A stretch of 64,000 nucleotides of DNA from Malus domestica. Lineage: Eukaryota > Streptophyta > Magnoliopsida > Rosales > Rosaceae. The DNA lies in the NCBI RefSeq assembly GCF_042453785.1, contig NC_091674.1:24196001-24260000 (forward strand), given 5' to 3'. The notes beneath the pieces were generated by a model, which saw only the letters and a program-made list of their open reading frames with translations, did no database searches and was not told the origin of the DNA. Position numbers and translations under genes: made by a program. Each line of letters starts with the position of its first letter. Position 1 is the stretch's first letter. This document shows, piece after piece, positions 3,209 through 51,300 of the stretch.

Positions 3209-3209
<1 letters not shown>

Positions 3210-3245
<36 letters not shown>
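3210..3245. repeat. (AT)n microsatellite
   Basis: About 17 AT units directly follow the right end of the TIR element. Confidence 0.9.
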
Positions 3246-7365: not shown

Positions 7366-7383
7366 GTTGGTATCAGAGCCTAG
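7366..7383 (+). other. Primer binding site (initiator tRNA-Met)
   Basis: TGGTATCAGAGC begins three bases after the left LTR, the usual complement of the 3' end of plant initiator tRNA-Met. Confidence 0.9.
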
Positions 7384-7863: not shown

Positions 7864-10800
7864 ATGACGACGGATGAATATTATAGAAAGTTTACAGACT
7901 TGCCTTGTTTCCATTCTGATGTTGTTAATTCGGTCGAGGTGTTATGTCGTTTTTGGCTGGATAATAAGAAGAAGTTGCGTTCTTTGGCCACCACTATCCA
8001 TTGTACTTTTTACCAAGTGTTTACGAGGTGTTGTTGGGCTTTGAAGACTTTGAGAATATGATCAGCGAGAGTAAAGAGGAATAAGAAAGGAATGAGAATC
8101 AGAATAAGACGATAAAGTTAAAGATTCGTCATATCAAAGACCTCGGAGGACTCAGAGCTTCAAAGGAAGTGAAATTAGAGCTAATTTTCCCAGCTTAAGT
8201 TTTACTGCCACTGGTCAGAGGCGAAGTGATAGATTTACTAGTGATCCCAGATTTCTGAGACAAGATGACTCTGGTAGAGGAAATGTATAATTGTGTCAAG
8301 CTAGATTGCTATGGGGAATCAGTTAATTTTTGTTGATCCTAATAGTATGGAAGATGTAAAGATGGTTAGACATTTTCTTGGTGTATTTCCAGATGACTTA
8401 CCTAGATTGCCGCCAGGCAGAGATGTGGGTTTTATTATTGAATTGTTTTTAGGTACAAATCCTATGTTAGAGATTGGTTCAGGTTGAGTTAAAAGTTCCA
8501 TTCAACTTATTATATCACATTGGAAAAGCTCCGGGTTATTTGTGAGGAAGAAAATGGACATTAAGGCTAGGCATTGATATTATGTAATTGAATCGGGTAA
8601 CGATTGAGAGCTGTTATCCATTGTTGTGTATTGATGATTATTTGATCAGCTCTGAGGCGCCTGGGTACTTTCTGAGATTGACTTGAGGTCTGAATGATAT
8701 TAGTTGAAGATTAACAGTGGGGATGTTCATAAGACTGAATCCAGGACTCATTATGGTCATTTCAAGTTGGGAGGCCATACGGAGTGACGAATGCACCTGC
8801 TACTTTTATGAGTTTGCTGAAGGAAGTATTCCAGTGATATCTGGGCCGGGTTGTTATTGTTTGCCATTGACGAGATTGATAAGATTAGAGCAGTGCATGC
8901 TAGATATTTAAAGTTGGTGTTGCAAAGATTGAGGGAACGTTGATGTATGCTAAGTTTAGCAAATGCTAATGTTGGATAAATTAATTATATCTACTTAAGG
9001 TATTCAAATGGATTCTTAAAAGAGTAGCAACGATTGAGAATTTGGAACAATTGCGAACTGTGACTGAGGTTCAGAGTTTTCTCGGATTAGCAGGATATTA
9101 TCGATAGTTCGTCCAAGATTTTAATTATTGCTTCGCCCTTGGCGAGATTGATGAGAAAAGAGGTTAAGTTTGAGTGGGATAAAAAAAAAAATTGTGAGTA
9201 GAGCTTCAGCAAGTAAAGTATTCCCTCACTCATGCATCTGTTTTCGCACTCCCAGACGATAGTGGTAATTATGTGGTCTATAATAATACTTCTTTGAATG
9301 TACTTGGATGCGTGTTGATGCAACATGGTAGGATGATTGCCTATGCTTCATGGCCATTGGGATCTCATAAGATGAATTACCCTAATTATAATTTGGAATT
9401 AGCAGCTATCATCTTTGCTTTGAGAATTTGGAGACAATGTCTTTATGGGAAGAAAAGTGCATGATTGTTACAAATCAAAAGAGTACCCAATATCTGTTTA
9501 TTCAGAGGTATCTTAATCTTAGGCAACAAAGGTGGATTGAGTTGCTTAGTGATTATGATTGTGTGACGAGGGTGGTCAAGCTAATGTTGTGGCTGATGCA
9601 TTTAGTAGGAAGACCCCAGTGAGAATTAATGCTTGGTACGCTTGCTATGTTCATCTTCTTGTGGATTTGAAATCTACTGGAGTAAAGTTGAGTATCAAAA
9701 ATCGAGAAGAAGCCTTACTTGCTAATTTCTAAGTTGGACCCATTTGGTAGATCGTACTCGATACTCGAGCGTTTGACGAAGAAATTCAAGAATTTATTTA
9801 AAGCAAGGAATAACGGGAAAAAGAAGGACCTTAGAGTTAGAGAATCAGATGGCAAGCCTATGCAAAAGAACAAAGTGTTTATGCCTAATGGTGTGGAATT
9901 AAAGAAAGCAATTTTGACGATGTACATTATTCCACTTCTACAATGCATCCCAAAAGTACTAAGATTTATCATACCGTTCGTTCATGTACTATTGACGGGT
10001 ATGAAAAGAGGAATGGCGAAGTATGTTAGTAGGCGTATCATCAGTCATCAGGTTAAAGCAGAAAGAAATAAGTCTTTTGGAATAATGTAGTCATTTCCCA
10101 TTCCACGGTGGAAATGGGAGAATATTACTATGGATTTCGTGGACAAGCTTCCTCGTATACAAAATAGTTAGGTTGGAATTTGAATAATAATTGATCGGCT
10201 GGTGACGTCAACGTATGTTACTTCAGTATGAGAACACCAACCTTTCCAGACAAGCGCAACATTTATTTGTTTGTTTTATGGAAAAAGAGATTTGGGATCT
10301 GTTAAACTTCTTGGGTATGTTGGTCCCTTCAGTTTGTTCCCTAGAGTAACGCCATAAGGCCGTGTAAAGCTATGTCTTGTGTTTCGAAATTGTTAGAATT
10401 GGGGACGGATAGTATTCAAGGCCCTGAGTTAGTGGATGAGACTATTCGGAATATTCAAGTAATTAAGTCTAACCTGGAAGTGGACCAGGATCGGCTGAAG
10501 AGCTTAGCAGACAAACATGCCACTGACCGGATGTATATGTAGGTGATCGAATGATTTTGAAATTATCACCTTGGAAAAGTATGATTCGTTTTAAAAAAGA
10601 AAAACAAGTAAGTCCTAGATACGTCAGACCATCTGTGATCATTGAACGAGTCAGTGAAGTTACGTACGGGCTGAGTTGCCTCCAGAGCCGATGAAAGGGC
10701 ATGATATGTTTTATGTTTCGATACTTCGACATTAAACCTCATATCCTTCACGAGTGATACCTTCTCAACCTTTGGAAGTCAATATGGATTTGACGTATGA

Positions 10801-10990
10801 TGAGGAGCCAGTGCCTATCTTGTATTAGAAAGATGATGTACTGAGAAATAAGACTATGAGTTTGGTGAAAGTTTATGGAGGAATCTTTCAGTGGAAGAAC
10901 CTACTTAGAAATCAAAGAATCGAATGAGAGAGATGTGTTTCGGGCTGTTTCATGGATATTGATGGATTGTAAAGATTGTGTAAATTTCGA
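7864..10990 (+). pseudogene. Remains of gag-pol of the Ty3-gypsy element
   Basis: Recognisable pieces in order: gag-like (about 7864-8061), reverse transcriptase (about 8330-8930), the RT/RNase H junction with 'SFLGLAGYY' text (about 9070-9120), RNase H (about 9240-9600), integrase core with 'WKWENITMDFVDKLPR' text (about 10100-10160), and the integrase tail/chromodomain with 'KLSPRYVRPSVIIERV' text (about 10590-10990), closing with the usual NFEDE motif. The coding region is interrupted many times and the interior is shorter than in whole members of the family. Confidence 0.85.
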
Positions 10991-11018
10991 GGACGAAATT
11001 TCTGTAAGGTGGGTAGAT

Positions 11019-13712
11019 TGTGACAGCCCGTCCCTAATTTTAAGAATTTTTAAAGTTTTAATAAAGGATTTTACAAAAATGCCCTTCGAGGCACGCACAT
11101 CATTCGAGGTTAATCGTTGTGTCGTGCCATCTAAGATTTGTTTTCTTGACATATCCTCGTAGTACTCGTCGTTACGGACGTGTGGGCGCAGACGGTTCGT
11201 GATTTGGAGTTATATCGAAGAAGTTATTAACGTTTGAAATTTGGAATTTTAAGGAATTATAATTTTAGTAAAATATAGAAATTCTTTTATTAAAATTTGG
11301 ATGGCCCAGATTAAAGGATTTTGAAATGGATGGCTGGGATGAGAAAAATGAAAGTTTTGTGTGGGTGTGTGCGTGGGAAGAACCAGAAAAACAGAAAAGA
11401 GGAAGAGAGATTGGGCAAAAACTGCCCAATCGGAGAAGAAGGAGAGAGAGCGAATCAGAGGCAGAGAGAGGAAGAAACTGACCAATCGGAACAGGGAAAG
11501 GAGGAAGGGAGAGAAGGTGAGAAGCGGAGGAAAAGAGGAAATGGGTTGGGGAGAACCCGTGGGTCGTTTCGACCCGGCGGTGCCCACGCCCAAATTCGAT
11601 GGATTTCGTCCAAATTTCCGACGAATTGAGTCAAGGTACCACTCCTAATCATCATCTAGGCCTTCCCTCTTTACGTTTCACCCCAAGAATCATTGAATTT
11701 CGTTGTGATTTCGCGAAGAACACCCCTACGGGTGCCGCGACCCTTTTGTTTAAATTCTCCAAATTTTGAAATGTTTTCTTTCAATTACTAACACCTTTAA
11801 CATTCCTTTAGGACCTAGAACAAATCCCAAGAGGTAATTGAGGCGTTGGAACAAGTTTGAAAGTCGAATTGGAAACACCCAAATTCTAGGGTTCTTCACG
11901 GTTTTGGTGAAATTGAAGCACTTCCAGGCCAAATTGGCCTTGGTCTCAGGTATAAAAGTTGTTCTACTCATTGAGATCTTCAAATCTGCAAATTTTGGTA
12001 ATTTTTGGAAATAGTTGAATTTTCCGGCGAGCCGGGGGCGGCCAACCGCCACCCGCGGCGGCCCGCGCGGCGGCGCGTGGCCAATGGCCCGCCAATGTCA
12101 TTATTAGCTTGTGATTAAGGTTCTAGGTTCTGTTTTGATAATTGATGGACGTAAATTGAATAATTGAACCTAAGTTGGTTACGATTCGTGGTTAGATGAA
12201 AATGTGAATTGACGATCCGACCGTTGGATCGTCATCAAACTTTGATACGTTGTAATACGTAATATTTGAGGATTATAGGAACTTACGGATTGGGAATCCG
12301 ATTTACGGATCTTCTGGAATTGAAGTTGTAAGTTCATAAAATAGAATGTTAACCGTCACTTAGTTTTGGAAATTGACGAAGATCCGACCGTTGGATGGTA
12401 ATGAAATTTTAGGATGTTGTCCTAGAGGTATATTGTGGACCTCTGGAAGTTACGGATTTGAAATCTGAATTGCAGATCATCCGGATCGAACTACGTAGTG
12501 ACGTGTCTTATATAAGTTATGTATTCTATCGGCAGAATTTCTGAGGTTGGATTTGATTGTTGTTCTAGGCGCTAATCGTCATGACGCCTTGATGTACGGT
12601 GCTAGGGAGTTGTGGGCGAACTCCAGGTGAGTGGGCAGTTTTGTTTTCGTATTACCTATATACTATTGTTTTTCCCAGAAAAAATGCTTTTATGCGAAAT
12701 TATGTTTTGAAAATGCCATGCATAGAATTATTTGGAAAATGTGAATTTCATATGAGTTATATGATTGATATATGATGCATACATGTTGCATGGTGCTGTG
12801 GAGGCACAGGTAAGTCAGGTGAGTTCGTTTATTCATTGAATTGTTGTTGTTGAGATGTTTGAGCTCATAATCTGCACCCTAGGTGTTAGTGCTTATATTA
12901 TTCACCACACCGCACGCTCGCCTTGGATCCAAGTAGGTGGATGTCGTACAGACCATGTGAGGGTTCCGACATGCCAGTCGTACAGACCATTAGAGGGGTT
13001 CCGACTGGTGGGTGACCTTAGATATGCGCGCTGATGATATGATGAGAGAAGCACTAGAGCGTATTTTACACCTTTCATCGTATAGACTACCTTACGTAGT
13101 TCCGAGTGATGTGCAGAGTAGGGCTGTATAGGTCACTGTGGTGACTCCGGCTTAGTGAGATATTGAGCTGTTGAATTAATCGTATAGGACCAACTGCAGG
13201 GTCTCCGATTGATTCCTTATTTCACCTGATTTATATTTTGATTTATGGCATGGCATGTTTTTCTTGAAAAATGTTAAAGATTTGGGATTCAAGCTTGGAG
13301 ATTTCATATGGTTATATATATATATATATATATATTTCTGAAAAGTGTTAAAGGTTTGAGATTTGAGATTTTTGCTTATATATATGTTTATATATATGCT
13401 ATTTTCTGGGAAAGTATACAGGTTTTACGGTGAGGGGTTAGAAATGTTTTAAATGAAAAGTTTTCGAAAAACTTTGTTTTACTGACCCACTCAATTTTGT
13501 TTTGCGCCCCTCCAGGTTCAAGTTAGCAGAGCTTTGGTGGCCACGAGGAATCCAACGGTGTTCTGACAGAATTCACAAAAGTAGGACTCACCCTCGGGTG
13601 TGTTATCTTAGTAATTGGAAATTTTTTTTTTTTAAAGCTTCCGAACTGTGTAAATGGTTACGTCACTCTCACGTGACGGCCAGCACGCCCTCCTTCGGGA
13701 CGGGGTGTGTCA
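11019..13712 (+). repeat. 3' LTR of the Ty3-gypsy element (2694 bp)
   Basis: Direct repeat of 4668-7365, ending GTGTGTCA just before the TTAAG target duplication at 13713. Confidence 0.93.
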
Positions 13713-20378: not shown

Positions 20379-20489
20379 CAAAAATTATTTGTAGGATTTC
20401 TAGATCAGTTGTTTCGGAATGGAATTTAGAACCTCATTGTATGATTTTGGAGGGCTTTATTTTGTTCATGCAAACATAAATATATGGGA

Positions 20490-21360
20490 GACTCTGGATG
20501 CGGTCTCTATCTATCAATATTCTTTAACTAAACTTTGTTGGTTTTCAATTTTTGATCTGAGTTCCTGAAATTAATGTGATGATTTATTTTTATTTATGTT
20601 ACTATATTTTTTAAATTAAAAATTGAAATTTATAGTTGTTTATGTTAATGAGATTTTTTTGAAATCATGTTAATGAGATTTTAAATAAAAACCCATAATT
20701 TGTGGGATTAAAAATATTAAAATATAAATTATACTATTGTGTATATATAAACATGGGTACATTCATCAAAATTAACAAAAAATTTATTGTATCAAAACAT
20801 GGGTACATTCTTCAAAACCACACACAAAAAAAAAAGAAAAAGATATTAGGCTTAATAACATTAGTAAATTTATTCGATAAAACTTGACATGGATACATTT
20901 TCAAAATCAAAGAAAAAAATGTATCCATATAGTTTTAAAAATTGATTAGAAAAAAATTGAATAGATTTTATATAAAAAAAATTGATACATTTTACATATA
21001 ACAAATTAGTATATTTAAGAATTGGTACATTTTAAGATTAAAAATTTGAAAAAATTACATGAATGGGTACATATAAGATTAAAAAAATTGAATTTAAAAA
21101 AAAAAAGACTAATGGGTACAAACTTATTCTAACTTTTTATTTATTTTGGAAATGTTTTGGATTAAAAATTAGTTAGGAGTTTGATAAATGTGTGAGTATT
21201 AAAATCCTAAATCAATTGTTAATTTTTATTTTAAAAAATTATGTAACTGAAATGTAAATTCATTATTATATAAATGCTAGGGACTTGGATAAAAAATCTA
21301 AAATCTAATAAGGTTTCAGTCAATGAACATCAATAACTAGAGACCGGATACTAATTTTTC
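20490..21360 (-). mobile_element. Non-autonomous long-TIR DNA element, copy B (inverted relative to copy A)
   Basis: The reverse complement aligns with 2369-3208 through the ends and much of the interior (shared 'tggtccctagtta..aatgttcattgactgaaacc'-type text and 'gtacccat' motifs). It starts only about 110 bases after the SPL stop codon, so it may lie in or next to the 3' UTR. Confidence 0.65.
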
Positions 21361-21383
21361 CTAAATATATTATTTACTTATAT

Positions 21384-23354: not shown

Positions 23355-26028
23355 ATGTTCTGTTCACATAAACGAAGCCGAGGTGGTGAGGGTAGATCGA
23401 TGGCGGCTGCACAGCTGAAAACTGATCGTGAACAAGGAGTGTTTTCTCGGGTAGACGACGACATTTTGCAGAACATTCTGGGGAGGCTACCGGGGGTTGC
23501 TTTCGCGTCAGCCGCCTGCGTCAACACAACTTGGAACAAGAACTGCAGCCACATGCTCTCTCGTCCCAAATTTGCTTCTGCCCTTTCTCTCAACTCCGAC
23601 CTGCACGTATGTCATTAAATACTCTGTTTTCCTAAATGCTCTGTTTTCCTTAAATACTCTATTTTCTTAAAATTCTATGTCTCCTGAAATGCTCTGTTTT
23701 TATTTTTGACTCTGGTGATTGTTTGTTTTTGAAGAATGCGATTGATGAAGTTCTTGTTGAGATTTTCTCTAAGCCGATTCGACCGGACTTTGTTGTCGCA
23801 TATATTGGAACAAATTTCAGCTTGGAAGAAACTCACCAACTTGTAAACTTTAGGCCTTTTTGTTATTAATTTTTCTTCATAGTTCTTAAGTTATTTAGTT
23901 TTCGGTTTTTAATTAATGGTTGTGATGCAGATTACTGAGAAGATAGGCTCTGGAATTTCGATCATTACAAACAGAGCCATGGGACTAATCGGCACAGATG
24001 TCGAAACTCATAATCTCCGCGAGGCATGTTCTTAATTTTATGAAACTTTAAAAGTTCAGTTAAGAACATTTGGCACCAATTAAGACCATGTTGAATATTG
24101 CACTATATGTTTGTGTAGGTGAACTGCGCTCATGGTAACTCTGCAAGGAACCCAGAAATCAATGGAGGCCTCGTCGTTTCCGTTGGATTTGTGCCTGGCT
24201 TGAAAGTTGAAATATTCCCCCTACCGAGTCCAAGACATGTGAGCTTTGTTGTTTTTTCAATTTGTTTTGTGAAGAGCAATTACATGACATGGAAGTGTTC
24301 GATACTCAGGCACCGCACTTGCTTATGATGGAGCATTTTGTGAGGGACATTCTGAGCTATTCGGGTCCTCTTCCGCCTTCATGCATGATGATGTTCGGGG
24401 TAAGTTGGTATTCCGTCTTCTGAGTTTTACAGGCTAAAAATTGACAGCTTGGTTTCCTTTTATTTCTTCGAACTCGGTTTCTTCCTTTCCATTGCTAATT
24501 TTTGACATGGTTGATCTAGGATAAACATTTTGACATGAACCTGGTTGTCGCAGCACTCGGTGAGTACTGTTTTCTTCTCTGATGCCGCTATTGGATGTGA
24601 AAATAAAGAACCTCGAATAATAAGTTTCGAAAAGAAAAACGGAGTTGCAGCTGTGAGAGCTCAATTTCTTTTTCCTGCAAAATCGTAGAATATCGTGTTG
24701 TAGATCATGTATTTTTATGTGTCAAAAACTTGTACATGGATCTTATGGCGGATATCTTCCGTTATCTTGCAGATGCTATTATGCCTGACAAGACTGCCAT
24801 CATCGGTGATGCAAGTGCCTCCTTTATGTACACTCGGAGAAATGAAACTGGAAATTACAGTAGCGATTTGTTCTACATTGCCGGTGCAGCACTCGTTTTT
24901 GTAAAGGATCAACACAAACCTGATTGTATGTCCCTTATGTCCCAATCAACACACATAGACACTCAGACTCGCACACATATTGTCCTATATTTTCTTAATT
25001 CAAAGTTCTGGTTTTAACAAATCGTCAATTTTATGCGCAGACATGGGGGAAATTGAGTTCCATGTCACATTGTCGCCGGGTTTGATGCCATTCGGTCCTC
25101 AAATCAAGACAATATCATCTTATGAGACGCCTACTCATAGTTCATGGATTTCCGCTGTAATGTCAGAGTTCGAAGGTGTCTTCATTGATTCCCACACCAT
25201 TCTAAGGGAGCTTCGAAGCCAGGTGCGTCGACATGAATATCTAGACCGTTATATTGTCAAACTGTCAATCTACCACAAAAAAAAAAAAAGACTAGACATC
25301 CACAGGGTTTGTACTCTCAATTCACAACTGTCAACGTAACATGATAGACTGTTAAACTCAAAACAGATTAATTTCGTTCTGACAAAAATCCGTGTTGATG
25401 CAGTTGGGCATGTCGGACATTTACGCTGGGGTCACCAAAAGAAGACAATACCACAACGGAGCAGGACCACCAGTCTCCATGACAACCTTGAATTTTCATG
25501 AAGTTAGAGGGTAAGTCATACGAACTTATGTTTTTGCCCTTGAATTTTTGTAGAGGTATATATGTATTTATATCTATGTTTATGTTTGAAATTTGTAACA
25601 GGGGATATGGGGACTACATTCTTGTTGATGGTGTGGGAATCCAACCCGATGACGTCTTCTTCTTCTACCATTCAGATGCTGCAACTGCAATGAACACCGT
25701 TGATTATGCATCTGATAACCTTCAAACTTTGGTTCACAATGATTCCGATATCCAGCGAGAGGTGTTCGGAGGGTTTATCTTCTCCAGCAACAAACGCGAC
25801 ATATCGTTGTTCAATAGATGTAATGTTGACTGTAAGTCGTTTGCTGACAACTTCCCAGGAGTTCCGGTAGCTGGAATGTTTGGAAATGGGGAGATCGCGT
25901 GTGGTGCTTTGCTTGGTGAAGAAGAAAACCAAGAACTCGGTCATCCTCGTTGTTGCGTCCATGCTTGTAGTTCTGTGTACTTGGCCATGACTTATGTTCC
26001 TCCACAAGCTCCATATTACTTGGAGTAG
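23355..26028 (+). CDS. F-box protein with FIST C domain, paralogue 1
   Basis: Ten coding exons: 23355-23606, 23735-23842, 23931-24023, 24119-24238, 24310-24399, 24520-24559, 24773-24925, 25041-25222, 25404-25510 and 25602-26028, giving 523 residues with an open phase throughout. The F-box is at about residues 31-70 (VDDDILQNILGRLP...ASAACVNTTW). The rest matches the FIST-type region of plant proteins like At5g63520, ending with the FIST_C part (VPVAGMFGNGEIACG). Such proteins are probably substrate receptors of SCF ubiquitin ligases; FIST domains are thought to bind small ligands. Intron 3 appears to use a GC donor (GAG|GCATGT). A second in-frame ATG is at 23400. The paralogue at 36016-39897 has the same exon plan. 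A poly(A)-type AATAAA lies at 26055. Confidence 0.88.
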
Positions 26029-27818: not shown

Positions 27819-27823
27819 CACTC

Positions 27824-28176
27824 TGTTTATACCATACTTAGGGTCTCTGTATTTAGATCTCGTATAAATACTTGGGGGACTTAAATGTAATTATGTAATA
27901 AAGGAAGGGGGCAAATATGTAATAAGTGAGGAGCACTTATTCTATAAAATGACTTCTCACCCTCACAATTAGGGAGGGCCATTTCTTAAGCCCTCCTCAT
28001 CCTCTCAAAGCTTTCACTCTCATTCAGAGCTCTCTCTCTCTCTCAGAAATATAATCAGTGTGGGAGTAACCCAAACCTTGGGGTGAACCACGATACATCT
28101 TGTGTTATTTACATTTCTTGCAGATTCACGGTCGGATTTACGTTGTTCCAAGACCTCCGGTTTTTTTTCATCAACA
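27824..28176 (+). repeat. 5' LTR of the small LTR element
   Basis: Direct repeat of 30362-30711. It contains CTATAAAATGAC near 27950, a likely TATA region. Confidence 0.9.
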
Positions 28177-28507
28177 TTTGGCGCCGTCTGTGGGAATCGA
28201 TACGAAAAGCTGTGTCAGTTCTTTTTCATTTTTTTCACCTCCACCGCAAGATCTACAAAATCTGCAAAAACACAAAACTAAAAGCTCCAAAAGAATCAAT
28301 CATCAGATCCACCGTCCACGGCCCTAATTCAATCTCCTGAAAATCTCTTATCCCTTTCGCCCCAAAACAAAAGCTTTCAGATTCTCTGCATGCATCGCAA
28401 TCCGTTCGATTTTTGTATGATTGGAAATCCGAATTGATGTGTTTCTTGTCGGATCGGACGGTCAACGATTCTTCAAAGATTGGCAACAGTAATGAACCCT
28501 ATGCCAA

Positions 28508-28638
28508 GTGCGATACAAAAAAACCATCGAGACCATATGCCAACCCACAACCTATAAAGAAACCTGCCAGAGCAGCCTCGAGAAGGTGGTAGGTGACAGA
28601 ACTGACGCCAAGGACCTGATCAAGGCCGGGTTCCAAGT
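28508..28638 (+). pseudogene. Captured pectinesterase/PMEI-domain fragment
   Basis: The frame reads KKTIETICQPTTYKETCQSS and continues LEKVVGDRTDAKDLIKAGFQ, which matches the start of the pectin methylesterase inhibitor domain found at the N-terminus of plant pectinesterases, including its first two conserved cysteines. The similarity stops abruptly after about 40 residues. Lying between the LTRs of a retroelement, it is a captured piece of a host gene rather than a working gene. Confidence 0.75.
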
Positions 28639-28675
28639 GGAAGAAGACAAAGTTAACCCGAGACAAGCTAGGTTC

Positions 28676-28860
28676 CAGGCCGGGTTTCAGGAAGCTAGCG
28701 GTGAAGTTGCACCCAGACAAGCACTCCGCCTCCCCTAAGACGGAGAGAGACAGAGCCACCGTCAGATTCAAGCAGGTCTCCGAGGCCTACTTGATCCTCA
28801 TCGACGAGCGCAAGCGCGTCGACTACAATTTCCAGATCTCTCTGCAGTTGAAACAACAAG
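28676..28860 (+). pseudogene. Captured DnaJ J-domain fragment
   Basis: The frame from about 28690 reads KLAVKLHPDKHSASPKTE and then RFKQVSEAY.ILIDERKRVDYN, covering helix II, the HPD motif, helix III and part of helix IV of a J-domain of the type found in small plant DnaJ proteins. HPD is the motif that stimulates Hsp70 ATPase in intact proteins. The fragment lies in a different frame from the PMEI fragment about 40 bases upstream, and helix I is not seen. It is an acquired host exon inside the retroelement. Confidence 0.8.
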
Positions 28861-29039
28861 AAAACCACCCCCATTTGGATGTTAATTAAGGGCTTACAGA
28901 TTTGGATCTTATCAACAATCAATGAGGTGATGCATCGTTATCATCACATGTTTGAGTCAGATCACAATCAGTTCATCAAACGCCTCTTTCATTTTTCAAA
29001 TTCTGAGCGAAGGCCCATATGCCCAAAAGAGCCAGACCC

Positions 29040-29222
29040 TCTACTATCACCAACCAGGTAACCAAAAGTACGCCCAGTACTTCAAAAATTATTCGGTAAC
29101 CTGCTGCTATTACCACCAACCAGGTGATCAAAAGTACACCCAGTACTAACTTATTCAGCAGCCTGCTGCTATTACCACCAACCAGGTGATTAAAAGTACA
29201 CCATGTACTTCAAAATTATACA
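29040..29222. repeat. Tandem repeat, about 60-bp unit, three copies, inside LTR element
   Basis: 'caccaaccaggt.a.caaaagta.' followed by 'cc(a/t)(g/t)tact' and 'cctgctgctatta' recurs three times. Confidence 0.7.
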
Positions 29223-29400
29223 TGAGCACTACTCATGTCAATCATACATAAACATTCATGAGCATCACTCATATCAATCATACATAAACATTCATGAGCA
29301 TCACTCATATCAACATTCATGAGTATTACTCATGACAACATCTATGAGCATCACTCATGTCAATCAACATAAACATTCATGAGCATCACTCATGTCAATC
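29220..29400. repeat. Tandem repeat of 'catgagcatcactcatgtcaa' type units
   Basis: About seven degenerate units built on CATGAGCATCACTCAT, some with 'tcatacataaacatt' spacers. Confidence 0.75.
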
Positions 29401-29580
29401 AGCTTTAAAAGCTTCATTTACAAAAGCTCTAGCTTCAAAAGCTTCATTTACAGAGCTCCAGCTTCAAAAGCTTCATTTACAGAGCTCTAGCTTCAAAAGC
29501 TTCATTTACAGAGCTCAAGCTTCAAAAGCTTCATTTACAGAACTCTAGCTTCAAAGCTTCAACTTGCAAAGCTTCACCTA
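29400..29580. repeat. Tandem repeat of 'gcttcaaaagcttcatttaca' units
   Basis: Six or seven copies of a 27-30 bp unit (AGCTTCAAAAGCTTCATTTACA plus gagctc) inside the LTR element; the frame through it (KASFTEL repeats) is a repeat translation. Confidence 0.85.
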
Positions 29581-29760
29581 CAAAGCTTCAGTGCATGGTC
29601 TACAAAGACCGCCTCGGAACAACCGCCACTTCGGCACATACATGGATTCAATTTGAAGTCTCTAGTCAACATACTATATTGACCGAAGACTTGGGGGACC
29701 ACATTATGAACCATATATTGGGCCTCATGAAAAATACTCCGGGGACTTAACCCATTATTC

Positions 29761-30150
29761 ATGTATTGAGGAGCGAGCCCTTATTTTATAAAAGGGACTC
29801 CCTCACTTTCATTAGAGGGAACCCATCACTTCTTTATTGAGGAGCGAACCCTTATTCTATAAAAGGAACTCCCTCACTTTCATTAGAGAGCACCCATCAC
29901 TTATGTATTGAGGAGCAAGCCCTTATTTTATAAAACGGACTCCCTCACCTTCATTAGAAAGCATCGCCGCCAGCTAAGGAACCGCCTCGCCGCGAGCATC
30001 ACTCCTAACCCATCATTTATGTATTGAGGATGAGTTCTTATTCTATAAAAGGGACTCCCTCACCACCATTAGAGAGCATCAACTCTAGCTCATCATTCAT
30101 GTATTGAGGAGCGAGCCCTTATTCTATAAAAGAGACTCCCTCACCTTCAA
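29761..30150. repeat. Five diverged repeats resembling the LTR TATA region
   Basis: Each unit carries 'gagga.cgagcccttatt.ta' followed by 'taaaa.g.actccctca' and mostly 'c.ttcattaga'. Spacing is about 70, 71, 114 and 82 bases. The LTR has the similar 'gaggagcacttattctataa' followed by 'aatgacttctcaccctca', so the array seems derived from LTR promoter sequence. Confidence 0.7.
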
Positions 30151-30361
30151 CGCCACAAGCCGAGCCAACCAAGGCAACATAACCCACAAGCCGAGCAGCC
30201 TTGCAACATGTGCTACATCTAGTTGAGCCTCATTTCAGATTGAGCACCGCCTCATATCGAGCATCAGTTCAAAACAACATCTAGTTACTTCGGCCCACAC
30301 ATGGACTGAATTTCAAGTCTCCAGCCAAAAGACTCTCTTTACTGAAGACTTGGGGGACTAT

Positions 30362-30711
30362 TGTTTATATCATACTTAGGGCCTCTGTATTTAGATCTCG
30401 TATAAATACTCGGGGGACTCAAATGAAATTATGTAATATAGGAAGGGGGCAAATATGTAATAAGTGAGGAACCATTATTCTATAAAATGACTCCTCATCC
30501 TCACAATTAGGGAGGGTCATTTCTTAAGCCCTTCTCATCCTCTCAAAGCTTTCACTCTCATTCAGAGCTTTCTCTCCCTCAGAAATATAATCAGTGTGGA
30601 CGTAGCCCAAACCTTGGGGTGAATCACGATACATCTTGTGTTATTTACATTTCTTGCAGATTCACGGTTGGATTTACGTTGTTCCAAGACCTCCGGTTTT
30701 ATGCATCAACA
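30362..30711 (+). repeat. 3' LTR of the small LTR element
   Basis: Direct repeat of 27824-28176, followed by the CACTC duplication. Confidence 0.9.
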
Positions 30712-31155
30712 CACTCAAATTCATATGAAGTTTAATAAACTCTTTTAAAATCTTGATGAATACCCATGCACTTCCATAGATTCAATGAAAATCTTGGCTG
30801 AATACGTATGAATTTGTAAACTCTTTGAAAATTCTTTAATCTTTTACTTGAATATCCCCACCCCTCCAAAAATAAGTCGTTAAAAAAGACATCCTGATAA
30901 TCTATATATTAATTGAGAAAGACTTGACTCCTCAAGAATTGGGGATGAACTAGGGGTGGGCACGGGTTGAGCTGGGCCCAAAATTGGAAGGGTCGGACTG
31001 AACTCGTTTTGAAAACAGAACGGGCCAGGCCAGGCGGTAATAATTAAAAATTGAAACTCACCCTAACCCGACCTGTTTCAAACGGACTAGTTCCTACAGA
31101 TCCAAACGACTATGTCAAAAAAACATTCTTTTAATCAGTATTTTGGCCCTTAAAT

Positions 31156-35402: not shown

Positions 35403-36015
35403 ATATTTAATATATAAAACCCATCATTATCAAACTCACACTATCATGAAAATAGTGTAATACATGTTAAACTCATGGTGTCTGATTCTGAGATCAAATC
35501 TTTTGCATTTAAAATGGGTGTAATCTCTCTATGGCTCTAATAATTAACTGACAGGTATTTAAAAATTCTTTTTTTTTAAATTTGTTTGTTATTTATTTAA
35601 TATGTGTCAAATAATAATTGGAGTTAGGCCATACCTTTTTTTTTTAACGATAAATTTTGTTAGATTAATCACCGACAGACCAACATCATCATATAAAGAC
35701 CAGACCCATTTTAATCTCTCTAATTCGTACATGTAATTCCAATTTTCCAACTGAAAGGGGTCCTCTCTGAGTTCCTTACACCTAATTCTTTTTATTAAAT
35801 AATCCGGGTTCTTAAAATACGATCCAATAAATATGATAACTTTTAAAATAAATTTTTGTTTTTAGCCGTTAGATTAAATTTCAATGAATGGATTATTTGA
35901 TGAGGAAAATTAGGGAAAGGATTCAGAGGCTCCGGATCCTTTTCCAACCACACCCAAGCGTCAAACTTCTACAATCCAAAGTCGGCAGCACCTTTACGAA
36001 ACAACCAGAGCTCCG
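35403..36015. other. Spacer and probable promoter of F-box gene 2
   Basis: No TATA box was clearly assigned; no other feature seen. Confidence 0.4.
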
Positions 36016-39000
36016 ATGGACGTGGCATCGTCGTCGTCGGCGAAAAAAACCGACACAAAACGGCCCCATACGACGGCGACAGGGTTGTTTTCGCCGATAA
36101 GCGATGACCTTCTCCACAACGTCCTTTCGCGCCTACCCGCCCTAACCTTCGCATCGGCGGCGTGCGTTAGCAAATCCTGGAACCAAATCTGCAGTCGCAT
36201 CCTCAATCGACCGAAACTCGCCTCCGCCCTCTCTCTCCACCCCTCGCCTAAGGTTGGTTTAGCGTCTAGATCCCTTGTTTGGTTTCCGAGAATATCACAA
36301 GCTCAAATTTTCACGCACACTCTCTCAAATTTTGTGTTGGAATTGACAGGTTGCTGTGAATGAGGTTATCGAGAAGGTTCTGGCCGAACCGATACGGCCT
36401 CATTTCGTTGTAGCTAATATTGGAAGTGGGTTTCGATTGTATGACATTTCCAAGCTTGTATGTGTTCTTGCTCTTATATACCCTTTAATTTTAATTAGTA
36501 TTGAATTTAGATAATTTTTAATTAAGAGAAGCAAATTATGGAATTTTCTGTTGTTGTTTGTTTGAAATTGCAGATATCGAAAAAATTGGGGTCCAGTGTT
36601 CCATTCATCATTTCTACTTCAAGTGGAATTGTTGGAAGAGATGCTCTGACCCATGAAATCAAAGAGGTTTGTGGTTGTGTTTTTCGGGTGTGCCGAGTTT
36701 TTGTGCGTTACGATGTAGAAAGTTTAATTCTTTACTAATTGTGGGTAACATTTGGTTGTTTAGGTTAAGTGGGGAGAAGTTTGTGGTGATGGAAGTGATG
36801 AAGATTGCTCTATACCAGCAAAGGATGTGAACTGTGGCATCCTTTTGACTGTTGGCTTTGTGCCAGGATTGAAAGTTGATGTCATCCCGCTGTTACGAAC
36901 AACAAAGGTGCCAAATTTACAATAAAACTACTACGCTGATTTCTTTAAGAATTCCACAGTGATGGATTTCGAAATGGGAAACTTAGGACATACAGTTTTT
37001 GGTTGTTTATTGTCATTTTTGGGAATTTGTAGAGTCATTCAAGCTTTTCTGCTGTTTGAATAATGGATTTTCATGACGTGTAAATTTTTTTTAATGACAT
37101 CAGGAACCTCGAGAGGTGTTGCTTGATAAATTCATCACGGATATTATGGATTACACCGCGTCTGTTTCAGATTGCACATCCCCAGTTGGAATTATGATGT
37201 TTGGAGTGAGTGGTTGTCCTCACACTTGATTGCCTCTCTCCCTCTTTATTTGAATCAGATGTAGCTTTCCTTTACTGCATTGCTAACATGGGACATGATT
37301 GATGGTGCAGGATGGGCTTCTTGACATGAAACCGATTGTTGATGCATTGGGTGAGTACTGAGAATATAATAAAAAGAAAATATTTTGTTTGATAGCTAAG
37401 AAAAATGAGGGATGATATCTTTATCACTTGAAACATTACTGAGATAAGCCGCTGCTTCCAGATTTTGTGTTGTGATTAACTTTTCTGTTGCATGCTCATG
37501 CTGGGTCAAATTTTGTTGATTGTATCTCAATGTCTCAATTTGTTGCAGATTATACTATGCCTGCAGAAACTGTCATTGTGGGTGATGAAAGAGGTCGTTT
37601 TCTATATAGAAGTGAGAACGAGTCTAGAAATGTCTGCGGGAGTGCAAAATACTTTACAGACGCTGTTGCTCTTATATTTGCAAAGGATAAAGGCAAGCCA
37701 CATGGTAAATGTTTGGTTTGTTCATTCATTTATAAAGTACTGTTTTGCCCATATTGTTTACAACGTAGTTTTATGCTAAGTTAGCTAACATGGATGCCTT
37801 CAGAAGTGTCACATACAAAGTAAAGAAATAAAAGACGCATCATTTCTTGATAGATTGCTACTGTAGCCTTGCAAAATTAGAGCTTCTTCTGATTGTACGT
37901 ATAATTTGCAAAGCCCCATAGAAGATTGGAAACACATCCAGATCTATTCATTTGTGAAGTAATATTTTTTGTATTTAATTTTTTTTTTTTTGTAAACATA
38001 TTTAAAGCTTTCATGATTTTATAAAATTTCTTGCGCTTTCAAATTTTCAGTTACAGTATATCTCCAAATTTTGGAACCGTGTCCTATCAAAACTGCATAA
38101 TTTTAAGGGTCTCATATTTGAGAGTTGCATGCTAATCTCTACTGTTCACGAGTGAAGGTTTTCTATCACTCTTTTATGCATGTTATTTTTTCTCTTTTCA
38201 AATTGCTCTTATTTTAGTAGTTCGCTTTCCAGATCTTGTAGACCTCATTATAGGCTTGTACAGTTCTGTAGATATTTGCCTCTTAATTTTCCATTAACTT
38301 GTTTACTTCCTTCGTCCTGCTTTCATGTGGAAACCTGGGCACACTCCTTTTCACTTACTCTTAACAATGTGTATATCTATGGTGGCTTTCTTGTTCTGTA
38401 AAGTTATAATGTCAAACCATCCAACGTGTTTTGTTAATCTCTTATTTGGTTTGGTATAAATGAGAAGGTATTGGAGACATTCAATTCCAAATTGCATTGT
38501 CAAACGGAGTGTCCACAGTAGGTCCCCGGCACAAGGCTGTTTCTGTCAAAGTGAATGAGTGTGAGCGTTCTACTTGGCTTACTGCTAGAAGAGAAGGACA
38601 CCCTGAAATTCTTGATGGTCAACAAATTCTTGATGATATCAATGATGAGGTAAAACTCACAGTTAAATTCCAAGTGGTGCATGCGGAAAGTGCCAGTTGA
38701 CTTGAAATGTTTTACATTCGACTAGTGAATCAAAAATATTACAAGTGAATTTCTAAATCTGATAATTTTAGAACTGTTGATATATCATGCATTCTTACAA
38801 GTACTTGTATATGTTTTTGAAATGAATATGTGACAGTTAGGAAATCATGCTGATTCTTCTGATCTGTACATCGGGGTTACAAAACGTAGAAAAATCTCTA
38901 TCGGGTCAGAGAAGCCAAGGTGGATTACGTCCTTGGAATACCATGGAGTTGTAGGGTAATACTCATGACTACTTTCTATATTGGCTAGTAAATTGTCTTA

Positions 39001-39897
39001 TTGTTGCTGCATATGTTCTTGTAACGAAGAAATATGAATTCCTTAAAACAAGAACATCCTTCACTGTGTCCTATGCTTTGATTTATGGTTCGTCTGCTCA
39101 TCCCTGTCAAACTCCTTGCTCCATCTACCACTTCACTGTAGTTGCTGTTGTTTTCCACATTAAAATTATGAATGGTACAAGATCATTGCCGGAAAATCAA
39201 TTTAAAGAATGTAAAGTAAAAGATCTTAATTCAGACGGTACTACAATCTTAATCTACATATATTATGTTTATATCTTATCATCTGTATCTGTGTCTGCCT
39301 TCTGTGTTATTGTGCGGTCTGGTCACTGGCAATTAAGTCCTGGCTGCAGTAAAGTGATTGATTTTTGGGAAACTAGGATTCTCTTTTGATTTGAATATGT
39401 TTGATAATTTGATAAATCTTTATGATTTAAGTTTTAACACGAGGCTTTTCTGCAGAGGAGATGATCAGTACCTTTATGTCAGTGGCGTTGGCATAAAAAC
39501 TGGTGATTACTTCAACTTCTATCGTTCAGACCCCCAAACTGCATTAGCTTCATGTAGCAACATCTCTGCCAGCCTGAAAAATTTGAAGTTAGAAGAAAAT
39601 CCAAAACATCGCCGTCACATGAGTGAAGTATTTGGGGGTTTTATGTTCGCTTGTTGTGGCCGTGGTGAGCCGTTCTTTGGACGGACCAATGTTGATGGCT
39701 CTCCTTTTGTGGAGAACTTCCCCAGGGTTCCATTGGCAGGAATATTTTGCGGGGGAGAAATTGCACGTGGCTCTTCGAGGTTGACCGGGGAAGCTCAGAA
39801 GGATAATGATGCTCGTTGCACTCTTCATGTCTACAGCACCATTTATCTTGTGCTGTCATATACTCCAGCACCAGCACCAGCACCGTTGGAGCATTAG
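36016..39897 (+). CDS. F-box protein with FIST C domain, paralogue 2
   Basis: Ten coding exons: 36016-36252, 36350-36457, 36574-36666, 36764-36907, 37104-37205, 37311-37350, 37549-37704, 38468-38649, 38837-38955 and 39456-39897, giving 540 residues. The F-box is at about residues 25-65 (ISDDLLHNVLSRLP...ASAACVSKSWNQIC), followed by the FIST-type region and a C-terminal VPLAGIFCGGEIARG motif. Exons 2, 3, 6 and 8 have exactly the same lengths (108, 93, 40, 182) as in paralogue 1; exon 4 is 24 bases longer, adding an acidic stretch (CGDGSDEDCSIPAKD). The start is the ATG at 36016, which opens a Ser/Lys-rich leader before the F-box. It probably acts as an SCF substrate receptor, as for paralogue 1. 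It ends in an Ala-Pro repeat (TPAPAPAPLEH). Confidence 0.9.
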
Positions 39898-41097
39898 ATG
39901 TTGCCTGCTGCTCGTCCCTTGAATCTCTTTGTTTTATAACCTTCTAGCAGCACAGAACTGTCTATACGCTTAGGTTACGCGACACAGTCGACAATCGATG
40001 AACGGCCTGTATGGCCGTAATTTAATTTGCCGGTAGGTGTTTTTTTTTCTGCATAGAACGCGTTCATGCTATATAAAAACGGATTAATATACAGTTGATC
40101 CAGTCTATATTATGTGCAAGATTATTTTTCAAGAAAATATAGAAAGGCATGAATGGGAACGTATACGTATATGTTGTGTGTATGTACGCACATATACGAA
40201 CTAATTAGAAACAAGGGAATCTGCAAAAACAGAACTGGTTATAAACTTTTAATCAAAAATATTTCTCGACAGACTAAATATACAAAAAACCTTAAGCTGA
40301 ACAAACAATAGAAGGCCATCAACTAGTGCATGTATACGGCTTCTAATTTCATTTTCGCTCAAAAGTTTGAAACTAGTTTTATTTGTGTATGTTTACTTAA
40401 ACGCGATGAAGTGAAAAGTCAACTGTGATATTGGCACGGCTCAATCAAATTAAAGGACCCAAATTTTGAGAGATTTTATTTGATTGAACCATACCAACAT
40501 CCCACATTTTTCAGCAAACACAAGAACACAGAACCACAAAGGCATGAATCATCACTTCAACCTCCATGGATCATATCACTCTCTCAAATACCTCCTTCTT
40601 TATTTGGTTTTCGCCGTGACGCATATCGATCGCCTTGGTCTCCGCCGCGACACATATCGACCGCAAGGCAAGTCGACGGTGCAGAGGGAAAAAGGAGAGG
40701 TGATGGATGTGGAGAAGCCATTGAAGTTGCAAATGGGATAAGAGAAAGAGTGGAATTTATAGAGACGGGTTGCAAACAAATATAAGTATAAAACGGTTGA
40801 GATGTCAAAATCTTTGTTCATTTGGAAGATGGAATATATTAAATAAAAATTAGCAATTTGGTATTCCACAATGCTTAGTGGTTTATGACATTAAATTGTC
40901 ACATTAATGCACAACAAATGATGCCTTGCCTTAGTCGCAATTTCCTCCTCATTTCTAATTATAATGTTTCCATTTTTTTAGCAAGTGGTACATAGTCTTC
41001 CTCTTTAATGTATTATGTTCCGAGTTTAAAACCTCTCACATTACTTTAGTTTAGTATAACAAAGAGTTTAGTGTTCAATGAAGCATGCCATTTTATG
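39898..41097. other. 3' region of F-box gene 2 and spacer
   Basis: Open frames around 40480-40870 on both strands show no family resemblance. No repeats recognised. Confidence 0.4.
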
Positions 41098-46600: not shown

Positions 46601-47195
46601 ACCTACTTACAAAGTACTATTTTTTCCTTCAAATTCTCAGCTAATTAACCTCAACAGCTTACCAAATACACAGCAGCTATACTCAGTGTAGCAATCCAAA
46701 ACTACAATTCAGCTATTAACACACATCAATTCGAATAATTAAAAACCAATTGTAGGATTAACAACAAATTAAGAAACCAAATGAAATATTTAAAGAAAAA
46801 GCTACAAAATTGGGGAACCTACCTGTTGGGGAAGACCAAGCGGCGTGGAGGACGCAGCGTTCCTGAACATTGGAGCAGAATCCGACGGTGATCTTATTGA
46901 GATCGCCGCGGAGGACTGACCCGGGCCAAACGGATGCTCCGTCGCAGACCGTGACCTGACCCGCCAAGACCACGTTGGGTGCCACGTAAGCGTCGACGGC
47001 GATCTTCGGGAGCCACTGGCCGAGCGGAATTATCCTTCTCTGACCTCTGTAGTCCCATTTGACCCGATCCGGTGAGGGTGTTATGGCCGCGGCTTTTGCT
47101 GCTTCGGCGGCGAAGGTGCGGTGGAAGGTGGATGGATGGGCTGAGCTGGAGAAGGAGGCTAGGGTTTTTCTGGAGACGCGAGCTATGGCTGCCAT
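43671..47195 (-). CDS. GAMMACAL: Gamma carbonic anhydrase-like subunit of mitochondrial complex I
   Basis: Two coding exons on the minus strand, 47195-46823 and 44047-43671, giving 249 residues, close to the roughly 252-256 of Arabidopsis CAL1/CAL2. The first 30 or so residues (MAAIARVSRKTLASFSSSAH...) are rich in Ser, Ala and Arg with no acidic residue, as in mitochondrial presequences. Then follow VKWDYRGQRRIIPLGQWLPK and the left-handed beta-helix hexapeptide repeats (VAPNVVLAGQVTV, SVLRGDL). Where catalytic gamma-CAs have GHSAVLHG this protein reads GAYSLLRS, so two of the three zinc-binding histidines are absent, typical of the CAL subfamily. The protein joins the CA domain on the matrix side of complex I. 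The 2.8-kb intron holds a Tourist-like MITE and other repeats. Confidence 0.93.
44654..44994. mobile_element. Tourist-like (PIF/Harbinger) MITE in the gamma-CAL intron
   Basis: Inverted ends GGGCTGATTTGGTA... and ...TACCAAACCAGCC, 341 bp, with the 3-bp target duplication TAA on both sides (44651-44653 and 44995-44997). The interior is A/T-homopolymer rich with inverted 'aaaaaagc' motifs. Confidence 0.85.
45130..45614. mobile_element. Candidate non-autonomous transposon in the gamma-CAL intron
   Basis: Ends TTGCACGGACAC... and ...GTGTCCATGCAA are inverted (11 of 12). Subterminal 'cggacac/gtgtccg' motifs recur, but no target duplication was found. The antisense frame at 45065-45373 is likely repeat translation. 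Confidence 0.5.
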
Positions 47196-48302
47196 TGGGG
47201 AGAGAGAGGTGGTTTGGGAGTGGGAGCTGGAAGGAAATGGAGGAGAGAGTGAGGTGGGGGAGTCAGGAGTCCGTTGGTTTGGATGTGGGCCGGAGATTGG
47301 GATGTATAATGGGCTAAAGCCCAGAAAGTTTATGCCGAAAAGCCCAACTATCATGGTCCAATCAAAGTAAGCCCAAAACCAACTAATTGGAATTAGAATC
47401 CTCTTGGATTCAACGATGAGAAATTTTCCCTCACATGACGTAGTGTTACCAATTCATGTATTAACATATGAATGAAAGAAAAAAGTTAACATGTCACGGA
47501 TATACAGTATAATGTTAATAAATAAATATACGTATTATAACATGAATGAATTGATAATATCACGTGACGGTGTAACAATCACACTGAAAAACTTCGCATG
47601 AATCATAACTTAAACGCTAACACTAAAAGTGAATCTATTACTTCAAAAATCAAATCGTGCTCATTTGTCTTTGGGAGGGCAATCCGAATTTGAATCTTTT
47701 AACATTTGGAAGAAAAATTCGTTAAATTAAGATTTAGTTGATAAAAAAAAATGTGTGTTTTAATCTTAGCCGTTTATTACATAATTTGGTTTGCAAGTTT
47801 ACACAGTTAATTCGTGCTTCTCTGATGCTATGGCATGATCTAGCAAGTAGCCAGTAGGTTGAGGTTCTGTGCAGAAGTACTTCTCCATCGGTACTATATA
47901 TGTATGCATGGATTGTGAATGTAACAAGAAATATTTTCTGTTTTTCTTTGTGGTGTTTTCAGTTTAGTTGATCTTAATCAGTCTAATCTGTATGAGTTCT
48001 TTCTATTGTTCTTGTTCCTCTGAAATAAGAAGACAAAAGTACGTACGTACGTAGCCAAAACAAATACAAAAAATATTATTTTTATCATTATATGGCCAAA
48101 AACTTATATGCATAACAACAATCCACATCATCATATACATAAATTTATTTCCACAAACTCCATATAGCTCGTACACAAGAAATTAGAAACTCAAGCTAGC
48201 TAGGTGCAAATATAATCTTAAGTATACATAAACAACAGCAAAAGCTGAAGCTGCTACAAGCAGGTAGCCTTTTCAAATCAGTAAGGCACTGGATGGTGCT
48301 GC
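47196..48302. other. Promoter region of gamma-CAL and 3' flank of MADS gene
   Basis: No gene seen. A CGTACGTACGTACGTA run is at about 48040-48053. The 48278-48302 segment is the likely 3' UTR of the MADS gene. Confidence 0.45.
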
Positions 48303-51300
48303 TCAGAGATCATGTTGAAGAACCCTGAATTTCAAATTAGTTCACTGCCACACAGTAAGAGTATAATTGATTAACAACAAGTTTAATTAGTGATAAACAT
48401 TATTAACATAATAATAATTTTAACAAATATATATATATATATGTGTGTGTGTGTATTATATTTTGGGTTAATCTCAATTTACTACCCTGAAGTTTCTTGG
48501 TTTTCAACATTTGGTACATAAAGTTTTTTTCATCCTAGAGTGGTACCTAAAGTCATAATTTTGAGACACTTTCATGCATCTGTTAAGGTTGCTGTTAAAT
48601 CTGCCATTAAATGGTGAAGTAGTGCCCACGTGGACAATAACTGGATGCCGCGTGAATGTTAAAAAATTAAAAAAATTGGGCTAATCTCTATCCCGCCCCT
48701 CACCCACCTCACCTTCCCCTTCCCTGATACCCACCCGCCACCATCCCTTTTCACCGTCCCTTTCCCCAAAACCCCCAAACAACCCTCCCTCCCTTCTCTC
48801 TCCATTCCAAAATTCCACCATAACCCTTTTTTTTTGTCGAACCACCATAACCCATTTCACTGTAACAATCATTCTTCTAAACAAAAATTCCACCATTACC
48901 CATTTCACCAAATCACCAAATGAGCATAAAAGAGACAAGAAAATCTTTAGAGAAACTTATAACCTCAGGAAAAGATCTTGACTTATACATTGGATCAAAT
49001 AGGTGGGATGCACGAACACCAGAAGGAAATCTCTGCAGAAAAAATCGCAATCTTGAACCCAGATGAGCACACGGAAGAATAGGGATCAAACGGCCACTCG
49101 ATTCCGTTGATCCTCAGTTGCACAATGAAATCGAACTTCTTTGGCGGTGGGTCGGCCTGTGCGTGCGCCAAGCTCTCATCTAGATCGAGAAACTCCGTCA
49201 TCTTCTCCGGAGAGACAGCGGCGTAAGTGGTGGTTCGAACAAAAGCTTGCGGCAAATCGGGTTTCTTGATCCGAGTTCGCATTCTGGGCGTTGGCTGTGG
49301 AGAAAGAAGGGAGGTAGGGTTGTTTGGGGGTTTTGGGGAAGGGGAAAGGGAAAAGGGTTGGTGGCGGGTGGGTATCAGGGAAGGGGAAGGTGGGGTGGGT
49401 GAGGGGCGGGATAGAGATTTAACCCAATGTTTTTATTTAATTTTTTTAATATTCACGTGGGCCTATATTGACACGTGACATCCAATCATTGTCCACGTAG
49501 GCTCCATGTCACCATTTAACAGCTTATTTAACATCAACCTTAACGGATGTATGAAAGTATCCCAAAATTATGACTTTAGTACCACTCTAGGATGAAAAAA
49601 AACTTTATGTACCAAATGTTGAAAACCAAGAAACTTCAGAATAGTAAACTGAGATTCATCCTTATATTTTTATACCTTGGAAATGCACTAATGCGTGCAT
49701 TTGCTCCCACAGTAGTTGTCGAGCAGGAGGCATCAGCAAAATTAAGCTCGTGCAACTTAATCTCAATTCAAAAGACAAATCAGCACATGTTAATCAAACG
49801 AAAGTGTCCAATTAATTAACTAAGCATTTCTATGATTCACTGCAATTGCAATTAATTAATAGAGGAAATTAGGGCAATATTTACTTACTCTTTTTAGCAG
49901 ATGCGTGTTTTCTTCTTGCGATGCTTTATGCTGCAGCATATTATACAACTAAATTAAAGAAACTTTGATATAAACCCAATTCACAAGCATGTCAAACCCT
50001 AATATAAACCCTATGAACTACTATTTCCGTACCTCCAAAGTAACAATTCATTTGAATTAATCGAACAACTTAAGCAGGAACCTACGAGAGGGTTGTTACC
50101 TTTCTTTTCAGCAAGCTAACGTTCTCCGAAATGATCCGTCTCTGTTAATTAATTAGATTAATCACAGATCAATTAAACCCTAGTTGTTATCAGTAACATA
50201 TAAATTAAACCAGAAATATATTAACATCATATATACCATTTTAGAGCGGATGCGTTCAACCCCAGTTTTTAACTGTCTTTCCAGCTGCTTTAGCTCTTGC
50301 ACGCCAAGCGTTGATAGCTCTTCCCCAGCCAAGTTCCTTGATATATAAGTTCATAATACCATGCTAATTAATTTGTAATATGTTGAAAATTGAAATAAAA
50401 CAACCACATATATATACACGTCACACGGGAAAAAAGTTGTAGTTGCTGCAAACCTACATCAGCCTCATTTCCAAGTTCCCTATTGATCTTCTTAACTCTT
50501 CATTTTCATTCCTCCAATACTGTCAAATATATACAGCAGATCAAAGTAATTAGTTTAACATTGCAGAGACAAGAAATTGTTGAAATATTCCACATTGATC
50601 GTATCTCTGAGAAAATAAGAGTTTAAATATCATAATCTCACTTCAACTAATACTAAGGTCTTTTGTCATAAAATCTCACACATGATGGACTGTATGAGTG
50701 GTAATTAACAAATTGGGGGACAATATTGGATATCGATGTTATTGGAAGTGACATAAAATTGAACTTTGATACAAAAGCTGTTTTTTCATGCTTTTGTAGG
50801 AGTGATTAATTACTTGCTAATTAGATATGAACTTTTATTTATTTGTTTAAGGGTGATGCCATCTGCACACCCATTTTTACCTCCCACGCACTTCTCTCAT
50901 ATTTTGGCCGCCGAATCGAATGAATTGAAAAAAATCAAAAGACATAAATTAACAAAAGGTATGTGAGAGGTAAAAAAGGGTGTATGAATAGCATCACCCT
51001 TTGTTTAATTAGCTTGGAGAAAAGATCAGAGTCATCTTATTTGAAAAGAATTAGGATGGAACATATAGGAGCCCATTTGATCCATCAAAAGAAGAAAAAA
51101 GTTAAGAGACATGTTTAATACTCTACTTGAATTCTACTTTTTAAGCTTTATACCTTAAATACTTATTTGGTAAGACTATTTTTATTTTTTTTATAAATAA
51201 ACTCAAAACTAACTTGAAAAAATTAGCCTAGTTCTAAACAACACAAAAAATAAAATTTTAAAGATTTTAAACTCCAAACCCACTACTTTCTCTCTCCTCT

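What the first reader, a model, noticed from the sequence alone, without database searches (positions are those of the whole stretch)
28508..28860. LTR retroelement carrying a chimera of two unrelated host gene fragments (PMEI and J-domain)
Between the LTRs of a small element with exact CACTC flanks lie, within 350 bases, the first part of a pectinesterase/PMEI domain and a J-domain piece with its HPD motif. The two families are functionally unrelated, so at least two separate captures are needed. The element lacks gag and pol, so it is a non-autonomous carrier. Host-gene capture is known for Pack-MULEs, Helitrons and some LTR elements, but this particular combination is not one I know. If transcribed from the LTR it could make antisense or small RNA against pectinesterase and DnaJ genes.
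Basis: partly seen in the sequence, partly recalled or inferred. Interest (0 to 1): 0.75.

Follow-up and report, generated by a model that had tools for sequence, protein, structure and literature searches.

The report
Retroelement carrying two host gene scraps
A small, gene-less plant jumping element has picked up short pieces of what look like two unrelated plant genes, a pectin-enzyme inhibitor domain and a chaperone J-domain; it is another example of a kind of gene capture already known in plants.

Summary
A 2,888-bp LTR element (27824-30711) has 353- and 350-bp LTRs (K2P 0.063), TG...CA ends, CACTC target duplications, a primer-binding site and a polypurine tract. Between the LTRs, 28520-28657 resembles the start of a PMEI domain (Pfam E 7.3e-6, 26.6 bits, under the 29-bit curated cut-off). 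28683-28835 resembles the last two thirds of a J-domain with HPD (E 5.4e-12, 46.1 bits). Two reversed peptides and ten control ORFs gave nothing comparable.

The pieces lie in different frames, neither open frame has a methionine, and both are sense to the LTR transcript. A protein product or direct LTR-driven antisense RNA is unlikely. Best reading: a non-autonomous carrier of host coding scraps, probably joined by template switching during reverse transcription, some 2-16 million years old by assumed rates, now inert. 'At least two captures' is not proven. No exact direct repeat of 8 bp or more brackets the pieces; a 7-bp one does, as expected by chance.

Multi-gene capture is precedented by maize Bs1 and soybean TRIMs. 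No host genome is held, so donors, copies and small RNAs were not checked. A new member of a known kind.

The parts
27819..27823 (.). target site duplication CACTC, left
   Evidence: sequence
27824..28176 (+). 5' LTR, 353 bp, TGTTTATA...CATCAACA, with a TATA-like stretch CTATAAAAT
   Evidence: the TATA label is recalled motif knowledge
28179..28200 (+). primer-binding site, 17 of 22 bases complementary to a plant tRNA-Asp 3' tail
28520..28657 (+). fragment of a PMEI domain (first part, C-x8-C), no methionine in its open frame 28496-28738
   Evidence: PF04043 E 7.3e-6 for the core; the C-x8-C label is recalled
28658..28682 (+). unassigned joining stretch; with the first bases of the J piece it repeats AGGCCGGGTT (28677-28686) of the PMEI piece (28623-28632)
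28683..28835 (+). fragment of a J-domain (from helix II through HPD to its end), different frame from the PMEI piece, no methionine in its open frame 28620-28889
   Evidence: PF00226 E 5.4e-12 for the core; helix naming recalled
29041..29590 (+). tandem repeats of 62, 36/25 and 29 bp
29660..30150 (+). LTR-like block: a second PPT/LTR-start-like stretch and five copies of an LTR TATA-region segment
   Evidence: five copies score 50-55, 0 of 500 shuffles of each reach that (best shuffle 35-50); longer alignment 104, best of 500 shuffles 50
30346..30361 (+). polypurine tract AGACTTGGGGGACTAT
30362..30711 (+). 3' LTR, 350 bp
30712..30716 (.). target site duplication CACTC, right

Best explanation
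This is a non-autonomous LTR retroelement, probably Ty3/gypsy-derived judging by its tRNA-Asp-type primer site, in which no gag or pol was found and which carries two uninterrupted scraps of host-like coding sequence, a PMEI piece and a J-domain piece. Shown: element structure, the two similarities, shared strand, different frames. Inferred: the scraps came in as RNA packaged with the element's RNA and were joined by template switching during reverse transcription. The element was then copied in trans by an autonomous relative and inserted here some 2-16 million years ago. It now has no coding function; at most it feeds siRNA production together with the rest of the element.
For: LTRs, target duplication, primer site and polypurine tract are present. 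Pfam hits with clean reversed controls and weak random ones. GC of 28496-28860 is 0.53, reached by 0.85% of 365-bp windows; apart from this segment these lie at 35878-36400, 46741-47426 and 49022-49442, the first overlapping an F-box ORF and the second an ORF with a sub-threshold hexapeptide match. No exact direct repeat of 8 bp or more and no exact inverted repeat longer than 8 bp around the pieces. Precedents: Bs1 with pieces of three host genes (review passages) and TRIMs such as soybean GmaRetroS15 with exon-only pieces of several genes and 5-bp target duplications (section read).
Against: Donor genes are unknown, so intron loss, the mark of RNA capture, is not tested. The PMEI score is under Pfam's curated cut-off and no solved PMEI chain is matched. 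A 7-bp direct repeat brackets the pieces, though at chance level. The lineage rests on 17 of 22 matches to a recalled tRNA; there is no pol to classify. DNA-level capture, by recombination or gap repair, is not excluded.
Confidence: 0.75

Rival explanations
1. The two scraps came in together on a DNA transposon (Pack-MULE, CACTA, Helitron) or as one retroposed piece that inserted into the LTR element.
For: Pack-MULEs and Helitrons carry host gene pieces, some as chimeric transcripts (review passages). An 8-bp inverted match (28442 / 28856) and a 7-bp direct match AAAACCA (28520 / 28861) flank the pieces.
Against: Such matches occur in 136 (inverted 8-mer) and 486 (direct 7-mer) of 1000 shuffles. 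No exact direct repeat of 8 bp or more and no exact inverted repeat longer than 8 bp between 28430-28530 and 28840-28930. Helitron ends and imperfect repeats were not tested.
Confidence: 0.1
2. The pieces are chance similarities in a GC-rich stretch.
For: PMEI is below the curated cut-off; stray hits down to E 7.8e-4 occur elsewhere in the element; solved PMEI chains are not matched.
Against: The J-domain is far above its cut-off and matches many solved J-domains. PMEI models of two libraries hit the same region, one of them weakly. Reversed peptides gave nothing and ten sampled ORFs nothing better than E 0.043.
Confidence: 0.04
3. The host regulates pectinesterase and DnaJ genes through small RNAs made from this element.
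For: Unique small RNAs map to 12.6% (rice) and 60.5% (sorghum) of LTR-captured genes (passages read).
Against: Both pieces are sense to the LTR transcript, so antisense RNA would need a second promoter or an RNA-dependent polymerase. Identity to the donors is unknown; no expression data.
Confidence: 0.06
4. The element makes a new chimeric protein, as Bs1 does.
For: Open frames of 80 and 89 codons cover the two pieces.
Against: Different frames; neither open frame contains a methionine, and none of the six ATG ORFs of 30 aa or more on the interior's + strand reads a piece in its frame. A run of 89 codons or more appears in 791 of 5000 shuffles.
Confidence: 0.02

Closest known systems
Bs1 retroelement of maize
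   Same: LTR element with segments of three unrelated host genes (review PMC13317346, passages read)
   Different: Bs1 is described there as forming a transcribed and translated chimeric gene; here the frames are not joined and have no methionine
Gene-carrying TRIMs, such as GmaRetroS15 of soybean
   Same: Small LTR element with exon fragments of several genes and a 5-bp target duplication (PMC4717578 section 13)
   Different: Those TRIMs are 1,172-1,449 bp; this element is 2,888 bp with long tandem repeats; exon-only origin is not tested here
LTR-captured genes of rice and sorghum
   Same: Host genes inside full-length LTR elements, 672 and 1,343 cases (PMC3726574, passages read)
   Different: The example legend seen there is of full-length captured genes; here two short scraps are joined; 'pectinesterase' and 'dnaj' do not occur in that main text
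Retand lineage of plant Ty3/gypsy
   Same: Tandem repeats before the 3' LTR; non-autonomous members exist (PMC11963269, abstract and passages)
   Different: No pol family in the 16 ORFs scanned, TRP28 not looked for by name; lineage not provable

Membership tests
LTR retrotransposon | two direct LTRs with TG...CA ends | tested here: met
LTR retrotransposon | 4-6 bp target duplication | tested here: met
   CACTC on both sides
LTR retrotransposon | primer-binding site and polypurine tract | tested here: met
   17 of 22 against a recalled tRNA-Asp tail
autonomous LTR retrotransposon | gag and pol | tested here: not met
   16 of 49 ORFs scanned, none gag or pol; the other 33 not scanned
TRIM | very small size, about 1.5 kb or less | tested here: not met
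   2,888 bp; size limit partly recalled, 1,172-1,449 bp for gene-carrying TRIMs
Retand/Tat lineage | reverse transcriptase phylogeny | not testable with these tools
   no pol found
LTR element with captured host genes | host gene sequence between the LTRs | tested here: met
   by protein-profile similarity only; PMEI below its curated cut-off
LTR element with captured host genes | exon-only pieces of identified donor genes | not testable with these tools
   no genome held
Pack-MULE or other TIR transposon | long terminal inverted repeats and 8-9 bp target duplication around the pieces | tested here: not met
   exact repeats only; 7-bp direct and 8-bp inverted matches at chance level

The most novel reading that the evidence does not exclude
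The pieces were joined in a single reverse-transcription round by switching at short matches between the two host RNAs (the 54-bp-offset AGGCCGGGTT similarity at the junction), and the joined cassette has been spread by the family and supplies small RNAs that act on both donor gene families at once.
Probability: 0.04. Interest if true: 0.6.

Novelty: new member of a known kind. Interest (0 to 1): 0.25.

Why it matters
It adds an example of a non-autonomous LTR element carrying scraps of two unrelated genes, with a readable junction that could show how reverse transcriptase joins host RNAs. As it stands it looks like an inert by-product.

Tried and rejected
Own-genome search: none held for this window. 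Exact 22-base LTR pattern in viral contigs and genome contigs: 0 matches each. Element against phage records: no match. Donor search inside the window: no second PMEI- or J-like stretch; the best off-target tblastn hit was E 3.8. tRNA genes: none by ARAGORN. TGTT/AACA Rosaceae subfamilies (PMC5659011, part 1 of 7 of the text read): rejected because those end TG-TT or AA-CA, whereas this element ends TG...CA. Ubiquitin as rival for the PMEI piece (E 0.6-0.9): not significant, and Pfam lists only PMEI for that frame at E 1 or below. A bacterial promoter scan of the LTR has no meaning for a plant and was not used. Searches for this combination in print, papers listed of papers found: 4 of 5, 20 of 24, 20 of 67, 20 of 25, 20 of 38, 20 of 28, 4 of 4. 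No listed title or abstract start names it. I opened five papers, in passages or sections only. Most subscription journals are not held.

Full report
The window is plant nuclear DNA by its gene content (SBP, F-box, FIST_C and DUF3339 matches above their cut-offs; a MIR171 hairpin). No host genome is held, so the species was not identified and all evidence is from the window, profile libraries and papers.

The element. LTRs at 27824-28176 and 30362-30711 align with 14 transitions, 7 transversions and 3 gap columns, K2P 0.063. At assumed rates (recalled) of 1.3e-8, 7e-9, 4e-9 and 2e-9 per site and year this is 2.4, 4.5, 7.9 and 15.7 million years. Ends are TG...CA, flanked by CACTC. A primer site at 28179-28200 matches a recalled tRNA-Asp tail at 17 of 22 bases, and AGACTTGGGGGACTAT precedes the 3' LTR. 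These fix the element's direction as +. The interior is 2,185 bp. No gag or pol family appears in the 16 ORFs scanned of the 49 of 30 aa or more listed for 28160-30380; the 33 others were not scanned.

The two pieces. 28520-28657 reads as 46 residues with the C-x8-C pattern that I recall as typical of PMEI domains. Pfam PMEI hits it at E 7.3e-6, 26.6 bits, under the 29-bit cut-off, and NCBIfam's PMEI model hits the same region weakly (E 0.021). 28683-28835 reads as 51 residues with HPD; Pfam DnaJ hits it at E 5.4e-12, 46.1 bits, cut-off 27.8, and the best solved J-domain matches the longer frame at E 1.9e-7. Reversed peptides: 0 of 2 hit anything at E 1 or below. Ten ORFs sampled from 72 of like length: best E 0.043. 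Stray hits in the element: down to E 7.8e-4. Against: no solved PMEI chain at E 10 or below. The segment's GC of 0.53 is reached by 0.85% of 365-bp windows.

The join. The PMEI match ends near 28657 and the J match starts near 28683. AGGCCGGGTT occurs in the PMEI piece (28623) and again at 28677 across the start of the J piece, and AGACAAGC at 28661 and 28715, both 54 bp apart. Over 52 bases 30 agree; 5 of 1000 dinucleotide shuffles give an ungapped score as high and 9 of 1000 a gapped one. I saw the similarity before testing it, so the figure flatters it. It fits switching at short matches but does not prove it.

Flanks of the pieces. Between 28430-28530 and 28840-28930 there is no exact direct repeat of 8 bp or more and no exact inverted repeat longer than 8 bp. 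There is a 7-bp direct match, AAAACCA at 28520 and 28861, and an 8-bp inverted match at 28442 and 28856; 486 and 136 of 1000 shuffles have such matches. The 7-bp pair brackets both pieces closely, so a small later insertion is not strictly excluded, but nothing raises it above chance.

Product. The pieces lie in different frames. The two open frames (28496-28738, 80 aa; 28620-28889, 89 aa) contain no methionine, and none of the six ATG ORFs of 30 aa or more on the + strand of the interior reads a piece in its frame. Runs of 89 codons or more arise in 791 of 5000 shuffles, so openness says nothing. Both pieces are sense to the LTR transcript, so antisense RNA would need another promoter or an RNA-dependent polymerase.

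The 3' half is built largely of tandem repeats. It includes five copies of a segment that resembles the LTR's own TATA region (scores 50-55; 0 of 500 shuffles of each reach its score, best shuffles 35-50), and a longer stretch that resembles the PPT and LTR start (score 104; best of 500 shuffles 50). This suggests earlier recombination or template switching with a related LTR, which makes switching a plausible habit of this lineage; that is inference.

Known kinds. Bs1 of maize carries pieces of three host genes. TRIMs such as soybean GmaRetroS15 carry exon-only pieces of several genes with 5-bp target duplications. [quoted passage not shown] The present case is the same kind, with a combination not named in the titles and abstract starts listed by my searches.

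Noticed in passing
4668-13712: A young LTR element: 2.70-kb LTRs 99.85% identical, target duplication TTAAG, TGGTATCAGAGC after the 5' LTR (tRNA-iMet type, recalled); about 3.65 kb interior with one ORF of 110 aa or more lying wholly inside, no Pfam hit at E 0.01 for it, so apparently non-autonomous too.
   Followed up: partly
29660-30150: Internal block of this element repeats its own LTR's TATA region five times after a second PPT/LTR-start-like stretch.
   Followed up: partly
40415-40511: MIR171 hairpin, 83.6 bits on the - strand; also 60.7 bits on the + strand at 40417-40513.
   Followed up: no
25492-26025 and 39358-39894: Two FIST_C-type ORFs on either side of the element, 42% identical over 146 positions, the first under and the second over Pfam's cut-off, with an F-box ORF at 35914-36360: perhaps an old local gene duplication.
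   Followed up: partly
2360-3222 and 20476-21368: Inverted pair of about 0.9 kb, 85% identical, perhaps two copies of one transposon.
   Followed up: no
48470-48804 and 49298-49656: Inverted repeat arms of about 0.35 kb, 85% identical, close together.
   Followed up: no
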